Below, one piece after another: positions 593-12,350 of a stretch of DNA of 12,350 nucleotides. Below the pieces are notes generated by a model. It ran no database searches. It worked only from the letters and a program-made list of their open reading frames with translations, and was not told the DNA's origin. The stretch's first letter is position 1. Every line of letters starts with the position of its first letter. Both the position numbers and the translations under genes were made by a program. Source of the stretch: Candidatus Omnitrophota bacterium (GTDB taxonomy: Bacteria; Ratteibacteria; UBA8468; B48-G9; JAFGKM01); the NCBI GenBank assembly GCA_023819375.1, contig JAMWDI010000011.1, positions 1-12,350 of the forward strand, written 5' to 3'.

Positions 593-1832
593 GAAATCTA
601 TAGGAAAACATCTCCTTGTTAAGAAAAACAAGGGGGTAAAAATGGAGGAATTAACGATGGCAGAGAGGAAGAAGATAACAAAAATAATGGCACAGAGGTG
701 TCAAAAAGCGAAGAAAAAAGAGAAAGGAAAGATATTAGATGGGATAGTTGCTTTGATAGGATATAATCGTTGTTATGCCAGTTGGGTTTTAAGGAATTAC
801 GGAAGGAAGGTATTGGTATATGATAATGGCAAAAGGACTATTTTTATAGGTGAAAGGAATTTACTGAAAAAGAGAAGTAAAAGAAAGATTTATGATGAGA
901 ATGTCTTGGTTGCATTAAAGAAGATATGGGCTATATTGGACTTTCCCTGTAGTAAGAGATTGGTAGATTATATGAAGGATATAATACCTGTTTTAGAGAG
1001 GCATAATGAGATAAAATTAGATAAAGAGACGAGGGGAAAACTTAATAAGATAAGTGCTCGGACAATAGATAGGATATTAAAAGAAGAGAAAAAGAAATGG
1101 GAAATAAGAGGGAAAAAGACAAAACCAGGTAGTTTATTAAAGAGTCAGATACCAATAAGGACATTTAGTGAGTGGGACGAAAAAAGAGCGGGTTTTATAG
1201 AGATGGATTTAGTAAGTCATAATGGAGGAGATGGAAAAGGGATATATGTGCAGACACTTGATGCGACAGATATATTAACTGGTTGAACAGAGACAATATG
1301 TGTAAAGAATAAATCACAAAAAAGTTTTTGAAGGATTAAATAAGATAATAAAACAATTTCCTTTTCCAATATTAGGTATAAATTCAGATATATAAATTTG
1401 TATTTAACAAGATATTGTCAGAGAAATAAAATAACATTTGCAAGAACAAGACCTTATAGGAAAAATGACAATTGTTATGTAGAGCAAAAGAACTGGCATA
1501 TAGTAAGGAAGACGGTTGGATACTAGAAATATGAAACAGAAACTTTTTCCAACCACAGATGAAATTAATAGAAAAGAAAAGATTAGGCAGTAAAGTAATA
1601 AAAAGATATGATAAAGCCAAAACCCTTTATAAGAGGATTATGGAATGTCCTGAAATAAATGAAGAAATAAAAAGAAAATTGACTGAACAATACAAATTTA
1701 TTAAATCCAGTAGACTTAAAAGAGAAATAGTTAAATTACAGGAATTATTATATCAGACAGTAAGAACAAATCCATTTTATAGAAAAAGAATAGAAGAAAA
1801 AAGAAAAAATAATGAACGTTGGTATAGATTTC
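593..1832 (+). mobile_element. Remnant IS element carrying the 642-1837 transposase
   Basis: A degenerate transposase is bounded by a candidate terminal inverted repeat: GAAATCTATA at 593-602 and its exact reverse complement TATAGATTTC at 1823-1832. The element probably extends slightly beyond both arms. Left of 593, the TTGCGTCAAATA segment looks like part of the end. No target duplication is obvious. The right side abuts an IS110 remnant, so the outer end may be lost. Boundaries are approximate. Confidence 0.45.
611..636 (+). promoter_or_regulatory. Hairpin covering the transposase ribosome binding site
   Basis: TCTCCTTGTT (611-620) can pair with AACAAGGGGG (627-636) over ten positions, two of them G-U and one at the open end, with a six-base loop. 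The 3' arm contains the G-run that serves as the Shine-Dalgarno for ATG 642. Several IS elements are known to block translation of transposase mRNA with such hairpins. The pairing is seen directly; the role is inferred. Confidence 0.4.
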
Positions 1833-1837
1833 ATTAA
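642..1837 (+). pseudogene. DDE (rve-type) IS transposase, multiply disrupted
   Basis: Residues 1-214 are continuous: a helix-turn-helix-like N-terminus (YNRCYASWVLRNYGRKV), then the start of an integrase-type DDE core, with the first catalytic Asp at residue 189 (FIEMDLVSHNGGDGKG). The frame stops at TGA 1284-1286, where relatives usually have Trp (TGW). Homology continues in other frames: FEGLNKIIKQFPFPILGINSD (frame shift near 1318, second Asp, then a small deletion of the NGSEF part near 1390), RPYRKNDNCYVEQKNW (third acidic residue), a TAG at 1524-1526, a larger deletion, and finally 1559-1837 (KLIEKKRLGSKVIKRYD). It resembles the 'transposase family protein / integrase catalytic region' group; exact IS family not assigned. 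An alternative start at ATG 657 has GGAGGA in front of it. Certainly non-functional. Confidence 0.85.
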
Positions 1838-2226
1838 TTTACAGATGAAAGAAGGTGTAGTAAAATTAGTAAAACAACAAAAATTAAAAAGGAGTTAGAT
1901 ATTGTTTTAGAGTCAATTTTATCAGTTTGTGTTGGTTTTGTAGAGACAAATTTAAAAAATTGTTTAACCTTATAAGGATTAACCATAGAGAGATTATATT
2001 TTTTTCTATTCATAAAATCAACAAGATTAAAGTGATAAATACCAGTCGCTTCAATACCAATAATACTTTCTTTTTTAAAATTTTTCAGAACATCATCAGC
2101 CAAGCAAAAACCATCTTTATCCATATTAAACTTTCTATTTTCAAATACAAACTTTTCATTTTTACAAGAGACAACAAAACTATCTTTACTGACATCAATA
2201 CCGATAAAATACTTAAAATTTTTCAT
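1834..2226 (-). pseudogene. IS110-type transposase (DEDD recombinase), 3'-truncated
   Basis: ATG 2226 follows an excellent ribosome binding site (AAGGAGGTG, seen as CACCTCCTT at 2232-2240). The protein begins MKNFKYFIGIDVSKDSFVV and carries the RuvC-like acidic signature of IS110 recombinases: Asp in GIDVSKD, Glu in GIEATGIYH, and two Asp in TQTDKIDSKTI. Homology stops after about 112 residues. The frame then runs through hydrophobic, unrelated sequence to a stop at 1834. The C-terminal Tnp20 half with the catalytic serine is missing, so the copy is dead. It is tail-to-tail with the DDE transposase remnant, which suggests one element was inserted into or deleted against the other. The upstream non-coding end is preserved. 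Confidence 0.88.
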
Positions 2227-2249
2227 AATGGCACCTCCTTTCTGTTTTT

Positions 2250-2392
2250 GGGAAGAGATTTTTCCCTTTATCCCAACCTCCTGGGTAAGATGGGCCAAAA
2301 TTGCCCAATCAACCTATATGGGACTAAAGGGGGAGAAAACAAACTCCTTTGTGGGCCTTATTGCCCAGGTAAAATGCTGTTTCTCTCCCCCT
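2250..2392 (-). ncRNA. Candidate IS110 bridge RNA
   Basis: This non-coding stretch lies just upstream of the IS110 recombinase, where IS110-subgroup elements encode their bridge RNA. Two tandem modules can be drawn. Module 1: 2328-2341 pairs with 2378-2392 (14 bp, C2383 bulged), leaving a symmetric 10/10-nt internal loop (2342-2351, 2368-2377) below an inner stem TGGGC/GCCCA (2352-2356, 2363-2367). Module 2: 2264-2275 pairs with 2319-2331 (12 bp, C2324 bulged; the last three G's are shared with module 1), with an internal loop of 15 and 11 nt (2276-2290, 2308-2318) below an identical inner stem TGGGC/GCCCA (2291-2295, 2303-2307). Known bridge RNAs have two such loops, for target and donor binding. 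Strand is assumed to match the recombinase. Folding was done by eye. Confidence 0.6.
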
Positions 2393-2425
2393 CGTTTAAT
2401 ATTCTAATTTTCAAAAAACTTTTTA

Positions 2426-2431
2426 TATAAT
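2426..2431 (+). promoter_or_regulatory. Possible -10 box upstream of the deoxyhypusine-synthase-like gene
   Basis: TATAAT occurs 37 nt upstream of ATG 2468 in a very AT-rich stretch. No good -35 hexamer is found at 16-18 nt spacing, so it may be chance. Confidence 0.2.
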
Positions 2432-2467
2432 AATATATTTTTAAACCAATTTTAACTAGGAGGCAGG

Positions 2468-3496
2468 ATGAAAAAAGAAAAGAAAAGAAAGAATATTTGA
2501 AAGAGCCAATTGAACATGTAGATATTAAAAAAATAGATGCAATTCCAATAATTGAAATGTATTCAAAAATGGCTTTTTCAGCAAGAACACTTGCTTATGG
2601 AGCAAAAATTTATGAGAAGATGTTAAAAGACCAAGAAGTTACTATAATTTTAACTCTTGCAGGTTCTCTTTTTAGTGCAGGACTTAAAAATGCTGTATGT
2701 GATTTAGTAAGGAATAATCTTGTAGATGTTATTGTTTCTTCAGAAGCAATAATAGTTGACCAGGACTTTTTTGAAGCACTTGGTTTCAGACATTATATAG
2801 GAAGTCCAGATATTGATGATAGAGAATTGAACAGATTACATATTGATAGAATTTATGATACATTTATTGATGAGGACCAATTAAGGATATGTGATATGAC
2901 TATTGCAGAAATTGCTGAAAAACTTGAACCAAGACCTTATTCTTCAAGAGAATTTATATGGGAAATGGGGAAATACTTAAAAGAAAAAGGGATAAAAACA
3001 GATGATTCAGTTATTCTTGCCTGTTATGAAAAAAATATACCTATATTTGTTCCTGCTTTTTCTGATTGTTCTGCTGGATTTGGTCTTGTTTATCATCAGG
3101 TTAAAAATTCAGAAAGGCATTTAAGTATTGATTCTGTGAAGGATTTTAAAGAACTTACTGAATTAAAAATTGCAGCAAATCAGACAGGCGTTGTAATGGT
3201 AGGTGGAGGAGTTCCTAAAAATTTTACTCAAGATGTTGTTGTTTGTGCAGATGTTCTTGGTAAAAATATTCCAATTGCATAAATATGCAATTCAGATAAC
3301 AGTTGCAGATGTAAGAGATGGAGCACTTTCTGGTTCAACATTAAAGGAGGCACATTCCTGGGGTAAAGTTGACTTTCCAAATACAGAAATGATATATTGT
3401 GAAGCAACAATTGCATTTCCAATAATATCTGCTTATGTATATCAAAAGGTTAAAAATAGAAAACCAAAAAACTGGGCTAATTTATTTATTAAGTAA
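2468..3496 (+). pseudogene. Deoxyhypusine-synthase-like protein, frameshifted
   Basis: With two single-base corrections this is a full-length (about 342 aa) deoxyhypusine synthase family protein. The enzyme transfers the aminobutyl group of spermidine using NAD. In bacteria, which lack eIF5A, relatives are thought to make homospermidine or act in other polyamine steps. Hallmarks: EPIEHVDIKKID, LTLAGSLFSAGLKN, FIDEDQLRICDMTIAEIAEK, EPRPYSSREFIWEMGKYL, FSDCSAGFGLVYHQ, GGGVPKNFTQD, and after the second shift GALSGSTLKEAHSWGKVD, whose SWGK lysine is the catalytic Lys. ATG 2468 has AGGAGG in front but goes out of frame in the A/G tract 2471-2490; TTG 2497 opens the main frame. The second shift is one extra G at 3277, giving TAA at 3281 region. 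It heads a + strand series of broken genes, 4 nt before the next ATG. Confidence 0.85.
3273..3292. repeat. Perfect 8-bp palindrome at the frameshift site
   Basis: AATTGCAT (3273-3280) and ATGCAATT (3285-3292) are perfect inverted arms around AAAT. Removing G3277 restores the conserved reading frame (IPIHKYAIQ) and makes the palindrome imperfect. This is what quasipalindrome-templated correction would produce. Confidence 0.6.
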
Positions 3497-11350: not shown

Positions 11351-12119
11351 TTTCTTTAATAACAAAATTTTTTAAAGTTCCAATACCTTCTATTTCTACT
11401 TCTATTATATCTCCTTCTTTTAAAAATACAAGTGGTTTTCTTACATATCCAACACCGGAAGGAGTTCCTGTAAGTATTATTGTTCCCGGCAAAAGAGTCA
11501 TCTGTTTTGAAATATAACTGACAATTTGAAAAGGGTTAAATATCATCTTTGAAGTATTTGAGTTCTGCATGATCTTTCCATTCAAAATTGTTTTTATATT
11601 TAAATTTGTTGGGTCTATCTCTGTTTCTATGTATGGACCAATAGGACAAAATGTATCAAATGATTTACCTCTTGCCCATTGTTTATCTTTTTTTAATTGA
11701 CAATCTCTTGCACTAACATCATTTCCACATGTATAACCAAATATATAGTTTTTTGCTTCATTCTCTTTAACATTTTTACATTTTTTACCTATAACAATTA
11801 CAAGTTCACATTCATAATCAACTTCATCAGGTGCTTGATTTGGTAAAATTATAGGTGATAAATGTCCTGTTAGAGAAGTTGTTGCTTTTAAAAATATAAT
11901 TGACTCTGTAGGTACCTCCTTCCATCCTTCTTCTGCATGTTCTTTATAATTTAATCCAAGAGCAATAATATTTGGAGGTGAAACTGGTGGTAAAAATTTA
12001 ATCTCATCAATATTGTAAGTTTCATTATTTTCTTCAAATTTGTCCTGGAAAGGTATCCAGTTTATAGTGCAAACTTTATTATGCACAATTAGGAGACATG
12101 GTTGACACTTTATTTTCAA
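11343..12119 (-). CDS. Fumarylacetoacetate hydrolase (FAH) family protein, altered N-terminus
   Basis: The FAH-family core is intact: LPPVSPPNIIALGLNYKEHA, metal ligands Glu103 and Glu105 in DYECELVIVIGK and Asp134 in GNDVSARD (29 residues apart, as in FAHD1-type proteins), RGKSFDTFCPIGP, and TGTPSGVGY. Family members hydrolyse C-C bonds in acylpyruvates, decarboxylate oxaloacetate, isomerise or hydrate, using Mg or Mn. In sugar-acid catabolism they can cleave diketo-deoxy acids. This is the first gene of the GRE operon. The first ~15 residues come from the end of the adjacent IS481-like element. The frame can begin at TTG 12119 or GTG 12086, neither with a ribosome binding site, and the native start (about 20 residues) seems lost. 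Expression may be reduced, or driven from the IS. Confidence 0.85.
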   Translation of the reverse strand: MKIKCQPCLLIVHNKVCTINWIPFQDKFEENNETYNIDEIKFLPPVSPPNIIALGLNYKEHAEEGWKEVPTESIIFLKATTSLTGHLSPIILPNQAPDEVDYECELVIVIGKKCKNVKENEAKNYIFGYTCGNDVSARDCQLKKDKQWARGKSFDTFCPIGPYIETEIDPTNLNIKTILNGKIMQNSNTSKMIFNPFQIVSYISKQMTLLPGTIILTGTPSGVGYVRKPLVFLKEGDIIEVEIEGIGTLKNFVIKENG

Positions 12120-12350
12120 ATTTTTTAATTAAAAAATTCATAGGGATATCATAACCCAGTGCCTGATGTGGTCTATTGAAATTATACTCTATTAAATATT
12201 CTAATAAATTTTTGTTAAATAATTCAACATCATCTGTATAATTCCCTAACTCTAAAAATTCTTCCTCTATCGTTCTTATAAATCTTTCTACTTCTGCATT
12301 ATCTTTTGGTGTCCTTACTCTTGTCCAATAATGTAGCAATGATTTTCTCT
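12079..12350 (-). CDS. IS481-like transposase, C-terminal part (runs off window)
   Basis: The visible segment covers the end of a DDE integrase core: HYWTRVRTPKDNAEVERFIR with the third catalytic acid (Glu in EVERF), then EEEFLELGN and the C-terminal YNFNRPHQALGYDIPMNFL, characteristic of IS481-type (and related IS3-type) transposases. The frame enters from the right edge without a start and ends in TAA 12079-12081. Near its end, ACATGGTTGACA (12096-12107 on the + strand) looks like the subterminal repeat of such elements, so the IS boundary is about 12080-12090. It overlaps the artificial start of the FAH gene. Whether the element is active cannot be judged from this part. Confidence 0.85.
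   Translation of the reverse strand, partial: RKSLLHYWTRVRTPKDNAEVERFIRTIEEEFLELGNYTDDVELFNKNLLEYLIEYNFNRPHQALGYDIPMNFLIKKFENKVSTMSPNCA

What the first reader, a model, noticed from the sequence alone, without database searches (positions are those of the whole stretch)
2250..2392. Candidate bridge RNA in a truncated IS110 element
The non-coding end upstream of the IS110 recombinase folds by eye into two adjacent modules, each an outer stem of 12-14 bp with a single bulged C, an internal loop, and the same inner stem TGGGC/GCCCA (2291-2307 and 2352-2367). IS110 bridge RNAs have two internal loops, one for target and one for donor. The guide candidates (+ strand) are 2342-2351 with 2368-2377, and 2276-2290 with 2308-2318. 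The recombinase is truncated but the RNA is preserved.
Basis: partly seen in the sequence, partly recalled or inferred. Interest (0 to 1): 0.72.

Follow-up and report, generated by a model that had tools for sequence, protein, structure and literature searches.

The report
Bridge RNA aimed at ribosome-binding sites
This is the guide RNA of a broken IS110 jumping gene; its target loop spells out a ribosome-binding site plus start codon, and related copies really are inserted at such sites, which gives a testable explanation for why some IS110 elements land just in front of genes.

Summary
Minus strand 2262-2396 encodes a two-loop bridge RNA of an IS110-group element. Relatives keep both modules with compensatory changes. 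A covariance model built from them finds the same RNA upstream of IS110 recombinases in two genomes outside the window's phylum-level group.

Copies in a same-genus genome give the element ends (LE CT-CCTAGTT, RE ATAGTTGA-CT). One insertion could be paired with two uninterrupted sites in sister genomes. The target is a Shine-Dalgarno/start-codon site, AAAGGAG|G-N-ATG. The first module is the target loop: guides CATTTTACCT and AAAGGAG spell AAAGGAGGTAAAATG. The left guide matches its flank far above chance and above other ribosome-binding sites (71/100 versus 50.8±4.9). The second module is the donor loop and pairs with the element ends.

The window copy is a fossil: 110 recombinase codons remain and the right end is gone. 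IS900 has a closely similar target motif, so the target preference is known; its encoding in a bridge RNA I did not find in the papers searched.

The parts
2262..2396 (-). Bridge RNA (two internal-loop modules), 5' end nearest the element's left end; transcript ends not determined
   Evidence: Folding, compensatory changes, covariance model finds it upstream of IS110 recombinases elsewhere
2328..2392 (-). Module 1 = target-binding loop; inner stem 2352-2367
   Evidence: loop strands match target flanks
2367..2376 (-). Left target guide CATTTTACCT (start-codon complement + spacer + half of the Shine-Dalgarno complement + core CT)
   Evidence: 71/100 matches over 10 copies against 43.8+-4.2 random and 50.8+-4.9 for ribosome-binding-site sites
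2344..2350 (-). Right target guide AAAGGAG (pairs with CT-CCTTT)
   Evidence: Right flanks of relatives read CT-CCTTTT; changes in the guide track the target in G175 L120, G051 and L008
2265..2329 (-). Module 2 = donor-binding loop; inner stem 2291-2307
2307..2314 (-). Left donor guide GGTTGATT (pairs with right end AGTTGA-CT, 6 matches + 2 wobbles)
   Evidence: right end
2278..2283 (-). Right donor guide CAGGAG (AGGAG pairs with CT-CCT of the left end; C may pair with the G after a skipped A)
   Evidence: Sequence comparison; inference for the skipped base
2397..2462 (-). Left end of the element, AT-rich; first element bases CCTAG (rc at 2456-2460), core CT (rc AG) at 2461-2462
   Evidence: Same terminus CTAGTTRAA in 11 copies with unrelated flanks; empty site
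1895..2226 (-). 5' fragment (about 110 codons) of the IS110 DEDD recombinase
   Evidence: PF01548 positions 1-104 of 155; NF033542 1-101 of 343
2234..2240 (-). Shine-Dalgarno AAGGAGG of the recombinase
   Evidence: Sequence; conserved in relatives
1838..1894 (+). Right flank: leader of the invaded gene ending in AAAAAGGAG, i.e. the other half of the target
   Evidence: Local alignment with the leader of the uninterrupted orthologue in G004, score reached by at most a few of 500 shuffles, and position at the Shine-Dalgarno
2458..2470 (+). Shine-Dalgarno AGGAGG rebuilt at the LE/host junction, followed by CAGG-ATG of the host gene
   Evidence: Sequence; orthologue G004 reads AAAAGGAGGAAGGATG
2468..3282 (+). 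Invaded host gene (deoxyhypusine-synthase-like, PF01916), frame broken just after its ATG

Best explanation
The feature is the bridge RNA of an IS110-group insertion sequence whose target-binding loop is programmed for translation-initiation sites. Shown: a two-loop RNA with compensatory changes lies in the left end upstream of the recombinase. Module 1 carries the guides CATTTTACCT and AAAGGAG, which together specify CATTTTAC-CT-CCTTT, the reverse complement of AAAGGAGGTAAAATG. Related copies are inserted at such sites, with the host start codon next to the left end. Module 2 carries guides complementary to the joined element ends ATAGTTGA-CT-CCTAG. Donor and target share CTCC, so the left junction rebuilds a GGAGG ribosome-binding site for the invaded gene. 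Inferred from IS621: the recombinase and RNA pair a circular element (RE-CT-LE) with the target and exchange strands at the CT core. The window copy itself has lost its right end and about 70% of the recombinase by an internal deletion; it is a fossil that could at most supply RNA in trans.
For: Position in the left non-coding end upstream of a DEDD recombinase. Compensatory changes. A covariance model built here finds the RNA between the left end and a 400-aa intact recombinase in six copies in G175, and once in G051. Element ends constant in copies with unrelated flanks. Empty site: L005 (left junction) and L061 (right junction) are two sides of one insertion in G003; orthologous sites are whole in G002 (ATAAAAAAGGAGGTAATGTATGG) and G000 (GGGAAGGAGGTAAAAATGG). 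Left guide/flank 71 of 100 matches in one register; neighbouring registers 28-51; random CT sites 43.8+-4.2; ribosome-binding sites with a start codon 50.8+-4.9, 0 of 20,000 draws reach 71; swapping guides between copies lowers it to 63.7+-2.1, P=0.0009. Right guide 7 of 8 with three of four G003 right flanks, 7-8 of 10 in all six G175 copies, and AGAGGAG matches CT-CCTCT in G051. Left donor guide pairs 8 of 8 with wobbles.
Against: No expression, binding or transposition data. The relatives in the window's own group are few and mostly fragmentary, so compensatory changes come from few independent lineages. In G175 the left guide matches only one of six flanks well (L124), so in that relative targeting seems to rest mainly on the right guide. 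L006 and L019 are not in front of a start codon. The core could be TC instead of CT. L008 matches its right flank only 5 of 8 and its left end is missing.
Confidence: 0.9

Rival explanations
1. The structured leader is a cis-regulatory element (attenuator or translational control) of the recombinase, not a guide RNA.
For: It lies directly upstream of the recombinase and is probably co-transcribed with it. In L006, L007 and L008 the 3' arm of module 1 can pair with either module, giving mutually exclusive helices.
Against: Does not explain why loop strands match the insertion flanks and the element's far right end in register, nor why guide changes follow target changes.
Confidence: 0.05
2. It is a bridge RNA, but target choice at ribosome-binding sites comes mainly from the right guide/core (AAAGGAG) or from open, transcribed DNA, and the left guide contributes little.
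For: G175: right guide matches all six flanks, left guide poorly matches five of six. L006 and L019 flanks match the left guide weakly.
Against: In the window's own group the left guide matches far beyond what other ribosome-binding sites give, and swapping guides lowers the match. L007 and L017, whose guide has a G, both have G at that target position.
Confidence: 0.2
3. The two modules are a chance pair of hairpins or a transcription terminator in an AT-rich region.
For: Folding z-score is only about -2 to -3.
Against: Conservation with compensatory changes and recovery by a covariance model next to distant IS110 recombinases.
Confidence: 0.01

Closest known systems
IS621 bridge RNA (IS110 group; Durrant et al. 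2024, PMC11208160)
   Same: RNA in the left end upstream of a DEDD recombinase; target loop then donor loop, each an internal loop with left and right guide strands; CT core contained in the guides; ATA beside the left donor; donor pairing on the right side apparently discontiguous; right target guide of 7 nt as described for some orthologues.
   Different: Different loop programme: a Shine-Dalgarno/start-codon site here. The left donor guide reads UU opposite the CT core (wobble). Sequence not similar enough for an Rfam hit.
seekRNA of IS1111/IS110 elements (Siddiquee et al. 2024, PMC11187229)
   Same: Same phenomenon under another name; upstream non-coding region marks the IS110 type.
   Different: Their elements use other targets; IS1111 members carry the RNA downstream and long subterminal inverted repeats, not seen here.
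IS900 (IS110 family; target motif CATGNNNNNNTCTCCTT in PMC8141618; Doran et al. 1997 cited there)
   Same: Closely similar target: start codon, spacer, Shine-Dalgarno complement, with the same orientation.
   Different: IS900 was not folded or compared here; whether its own RNA carries such guides is untested here. Its antisense hed frame has no conserved counterpart in the relatives looked at.

Membership tests
IS110-group element (IS110 family) | DEDD (RuvC-like) recombinase with C-terminal transposase domain | tested here: inconclusive
   Window copy keeps only the N-terminal part (PF01548 1-104/155; NF033542). The relatives L008 (frameshifted) and G175 (intact, 400 aa) carry the full-length protein.
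IS110-group element (IS110 family) | Long left non-coding end, short right end, only short subterminal repeats | tested here: met
   In relatives the left end is about 230 bp and the right end roughly 20-70 bp; ends constant between copies. The window copy itself lacks the right end.
IS110-group element (IS110 family) | Seamless insertion at a specific site without long target duplication | tested here: met
   Empty-site comparison L005 + L061 against G002 and G000: only 2-4 bases shared by both junctions.
Bridge RNA | Two internal loops, each with two guide strands, conserved by compensatory change | tested here: met
Bridge RNA | Target-loop guides complementary to insertion flanks | tested here: met
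   weak for the left guide in G175.
Bridge RNA | Donor-loop guides complementary to the joined element ends | tested here: met
   Left donor guide 8 of 8 with wobbles; right donor guide AGGAG with CTCCT by inspection.
Bridge RNA | RNA is transcribed, bound by the recombinase and directs recombination | not testable with these tools
   Needs RNA-seq, binding and recombination assays.

The most novel reading that the evidence does not exclude
A lineage of IS110 elements present in more than one phylum carries bridge RNAs hard-wired to translation-initiation sites. Donor and target share CTCC, so each insertion rebuilds a ribosome-binding site for the invaded gene: a guide programmed for a functional signal present in front of many genes, with damage limited by design. 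The same logic would explain IS900.
Probability: 0.5. Interest if true: 0.6.

Novelty: new member of a known kind. Interest (0 to 1): 0.45.

Why it matters
IS900-type elements have been known since at least 1997 to enter translation-initiation signals (Doran et al. 1997, cited in PMC8141618). Here the preference can be read directly from the two guide strands of a bridge RNA, including the start-codon complement. That turns an old target preference into a prediction testable by changing a few guide bases, and gives intact elements (G175, G051) to test it with.

Tried and rejected
Rfam at gathering and permissive thresholds: nothing relevant. Viral contigs: no relative. Plasmid records: many IS110 proteins but only about 30% identical, not followed. 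Genome contigs: one relative, the same as L006. Idea that an adjacent rve-like transposase remnant (642-1837) truncated the IS110 copy: rejected, because the sequence up to 1894 aligns with the native leader of the invaded gene in G004. Covariance-model hit in G269 (E=4e-6): not beside an IS110 gene, taken as a false positive. Weak hits in G012/G015 do lie upstream of IS110 recombinases but their ends were not worked out. An antisense frame from the right end comparable to IS900 hed: open in G003 copies as far as they reach, but closed in L033 and L008. The exact core (CT against TC) could not be settled: L017 and L023 vary at single positions.

Full report
The window is contig 6 of a 1.73-Mb genome. 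A related contig held under a name, L029, is labelled Candidatus Omnitrophota. On the minus strand, 1895-2226 encodes the first 110 or so codons of an IS110 DEDD recombinase (PF01548 1-104 of 155; NF033542), preceded by about 235 bp of non-coding left end.

Structure. Energy alone is only moderately better than shuffles (z -2.2 to -3.0). Six full-length homologues (window, L005, L006, L007, L017, L008) were aligned by sequence only. The inner stem of module 1 reads UGGGC/GCCCA or UGAGC/GCUCA; that of module 2 reads GGGC/GCCC, GAGU/ACUC or GAGC/GCUC; its outer stem reads UCCCA/UGGGA or UCUCA/UGAGA. 98.2% of cells pair, 7 cells are compensatory in 4 pairs, and slid controls give 0-1. The sequences are few and related, so these counts reflect a small number of independent events. 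In L006, L007 and L008 the 3' arm of module 1 can also extend module 2, so the outer helices may be alternative states.

A covariance model of these six sequences, searched over 291 genomes, finds nearly all known copies plus six in G175 (E 5e-8 to 5e-7) and one in G051 (1e-9), both outside the window's phylum-level group. In both, the RNA lies between the left end and an IS110 recombinase; the six G175 copies are intact elements of about 1,395 bp with a 400-aa open frame. One hit, G269, is not near an IS110 gene and is taken as chance.

Ends. Eleven copies share a left terminus CTAGTTRAA with unrelated flanks. The right terminus is ATAGTTGACT followed by C(C/T)T in G003, G021, G001 and G016, and the same motif ends the G175 and G051 elements. 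The L005 left junction and the L061 right junction lie in one locus that is uninterrupted in G002 and G000. G003 reads TAAAAGGAG|TCAACTAT at the right junction and CTAG|GAGGAAAATTATGG at the left. The whole sites read AAAAAAGGAGGTAATGTATGG (G002) and GGGAAGGAGGTAAAAATGG (G000). The element therefore enters the Shine-Dalgarno sequence. Core CT (AG on the gene strand) fits best, as in IS621; TC is not excluded.

Targets. Of the eleven left flanks with the shared terminus (L029 duplicates L006 and is not counted), nine carry a start codon 4-8 bases beyond the GAGG or AAGG (window, L005, L007, L009, L016, L017, L021, L023, L026). Six of these open frames are at least 120 aa: L005, L009, L016, L017, L021, L026. 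L006 and L019 have no start codon there. G051 also sits at a ribosome-binding site (AGAGGAGGATACATGG). The G175 copies sit at AAAGGAG or AGAGGAG motifs, at least one of which looks internal to a gene.

Guides. In module 1 the left strand CATTTTACCT is aligned so that its last two bases meet the core. Over ten copies 71 of 100 bases match the flank. Random 10-mers ending in CT give 43.8+-4.2 and other registers 28-51. Because any ribosome-binding site resembles another, I repeated the test against sites with the same right half and a nearby start codon: 50.8+-4.9, none of 20,000 draws reaching 71. Exchanging guides among copies gives 63.7+-2.1, P=0.0009. The right strand AAAGGAG pairs with CT-CCTTT, the right flank in three of four G003 copies. 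Variant right guides meet variant targets in G175 L120 (GAGGAG with CTCCTC), in G051 (AGAGGAG with CTCCTCT) and, partly, in L008 (AAAGAG with CTCTT). In module 2 the left strand GGTTGATT pairs with AGTTGACT of the right end by 6 matches and 2 wobbles, and AGGAG pairs with CTCCT of the left end (and inspection). Module 1 is thus the target loop and module 2 the donor loop, in the IS621 order.

The window copy. The leader 1838-1894 ending in AAAAAGGAG aligns with the leader of the uninterrupted orthologue in G004 (TATAAAAGGAGGAAGGATG). The original target was therefore AAAAAGGAGGCAGGATG, and the copy has lost everything between recombinase codon ~110 and the last base or two of the right end. 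It is not interrupted by the neighbouring transposase remnant. No intact IS110 gene of this type was found in this genome, so the copy is presumably immobile.

Comparison with the literature. The architecture agrees with the bridge RNA of IS621 (PMC11208160) and the seekRNA description (PMC11187229). Searches inside those papers found no mention of Shine-Dalgarno targets or IS900. IS900, an IS110-family element, has the target motif CATGNNNNNNTCTCCTT (PMC8141618), closely similar to the target read here from the RNA. Only open-licence PubMed Central papers were searched, so an earlier statement of this link elsewhere is possible.

Mechanism and limits. Shown by sequence: structure, ends, target, and guide complementarity. 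Inferred from IS621: a circular intermediate, an RNA-recombinase complex, and strand exchange at the core. An attractive but untested corollary is that, because donor and target share CTCC, the left junction rebuilds GGAGG in front of the invaded gene, which may soften the cost of insertion.

Noticed in passing
window 642-1837 (+): Broken open frames that look like a transposase remnant of the rve/DDE kind; no Pfam or NCBIfam match. It lies upstream of the invaded gene's leader and did not cause the IS110 truncation.
   Followed up: partly
window 2468-3496 (+): The invaded deoxyhypusine-synthase-like gene is frame-broken just after its ATG and again near 3282; either a pseudogene or indel errors of a long-read assembly. 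G004 has an uninterrupted orthologue start.
   Followed up: partly
L056 (G004) and L060 (G000), around position 1500: AAAGGAGTCAACTATATAAA...ATGAAAAAATT, nearly identical to the G003 right end, sits directly in front of host gene starts without the rest of the element; possibly scars of lost copies.
   Followed up: no
L019, L021, L009, L026 (G003, G002): Several left-end fragments are cut within or just after module 1 or in the module-2 inner stem and run into unrelated sequence; repeated loss of the 3' part leaves RNA-bearing left ends at gene starts.
   Followed up: partly
L120-L125 (G175, one-contig genome): Six intact copies of a related IS110 element, four of them identical, suggesting recent activity; the right guide fits all flanks, the left guide only one.
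   Followed up: yes
window 12079-12348 (-): C-terminal fragment of an IS481/IS3-type transposase at the window's end.
   Followed up: no
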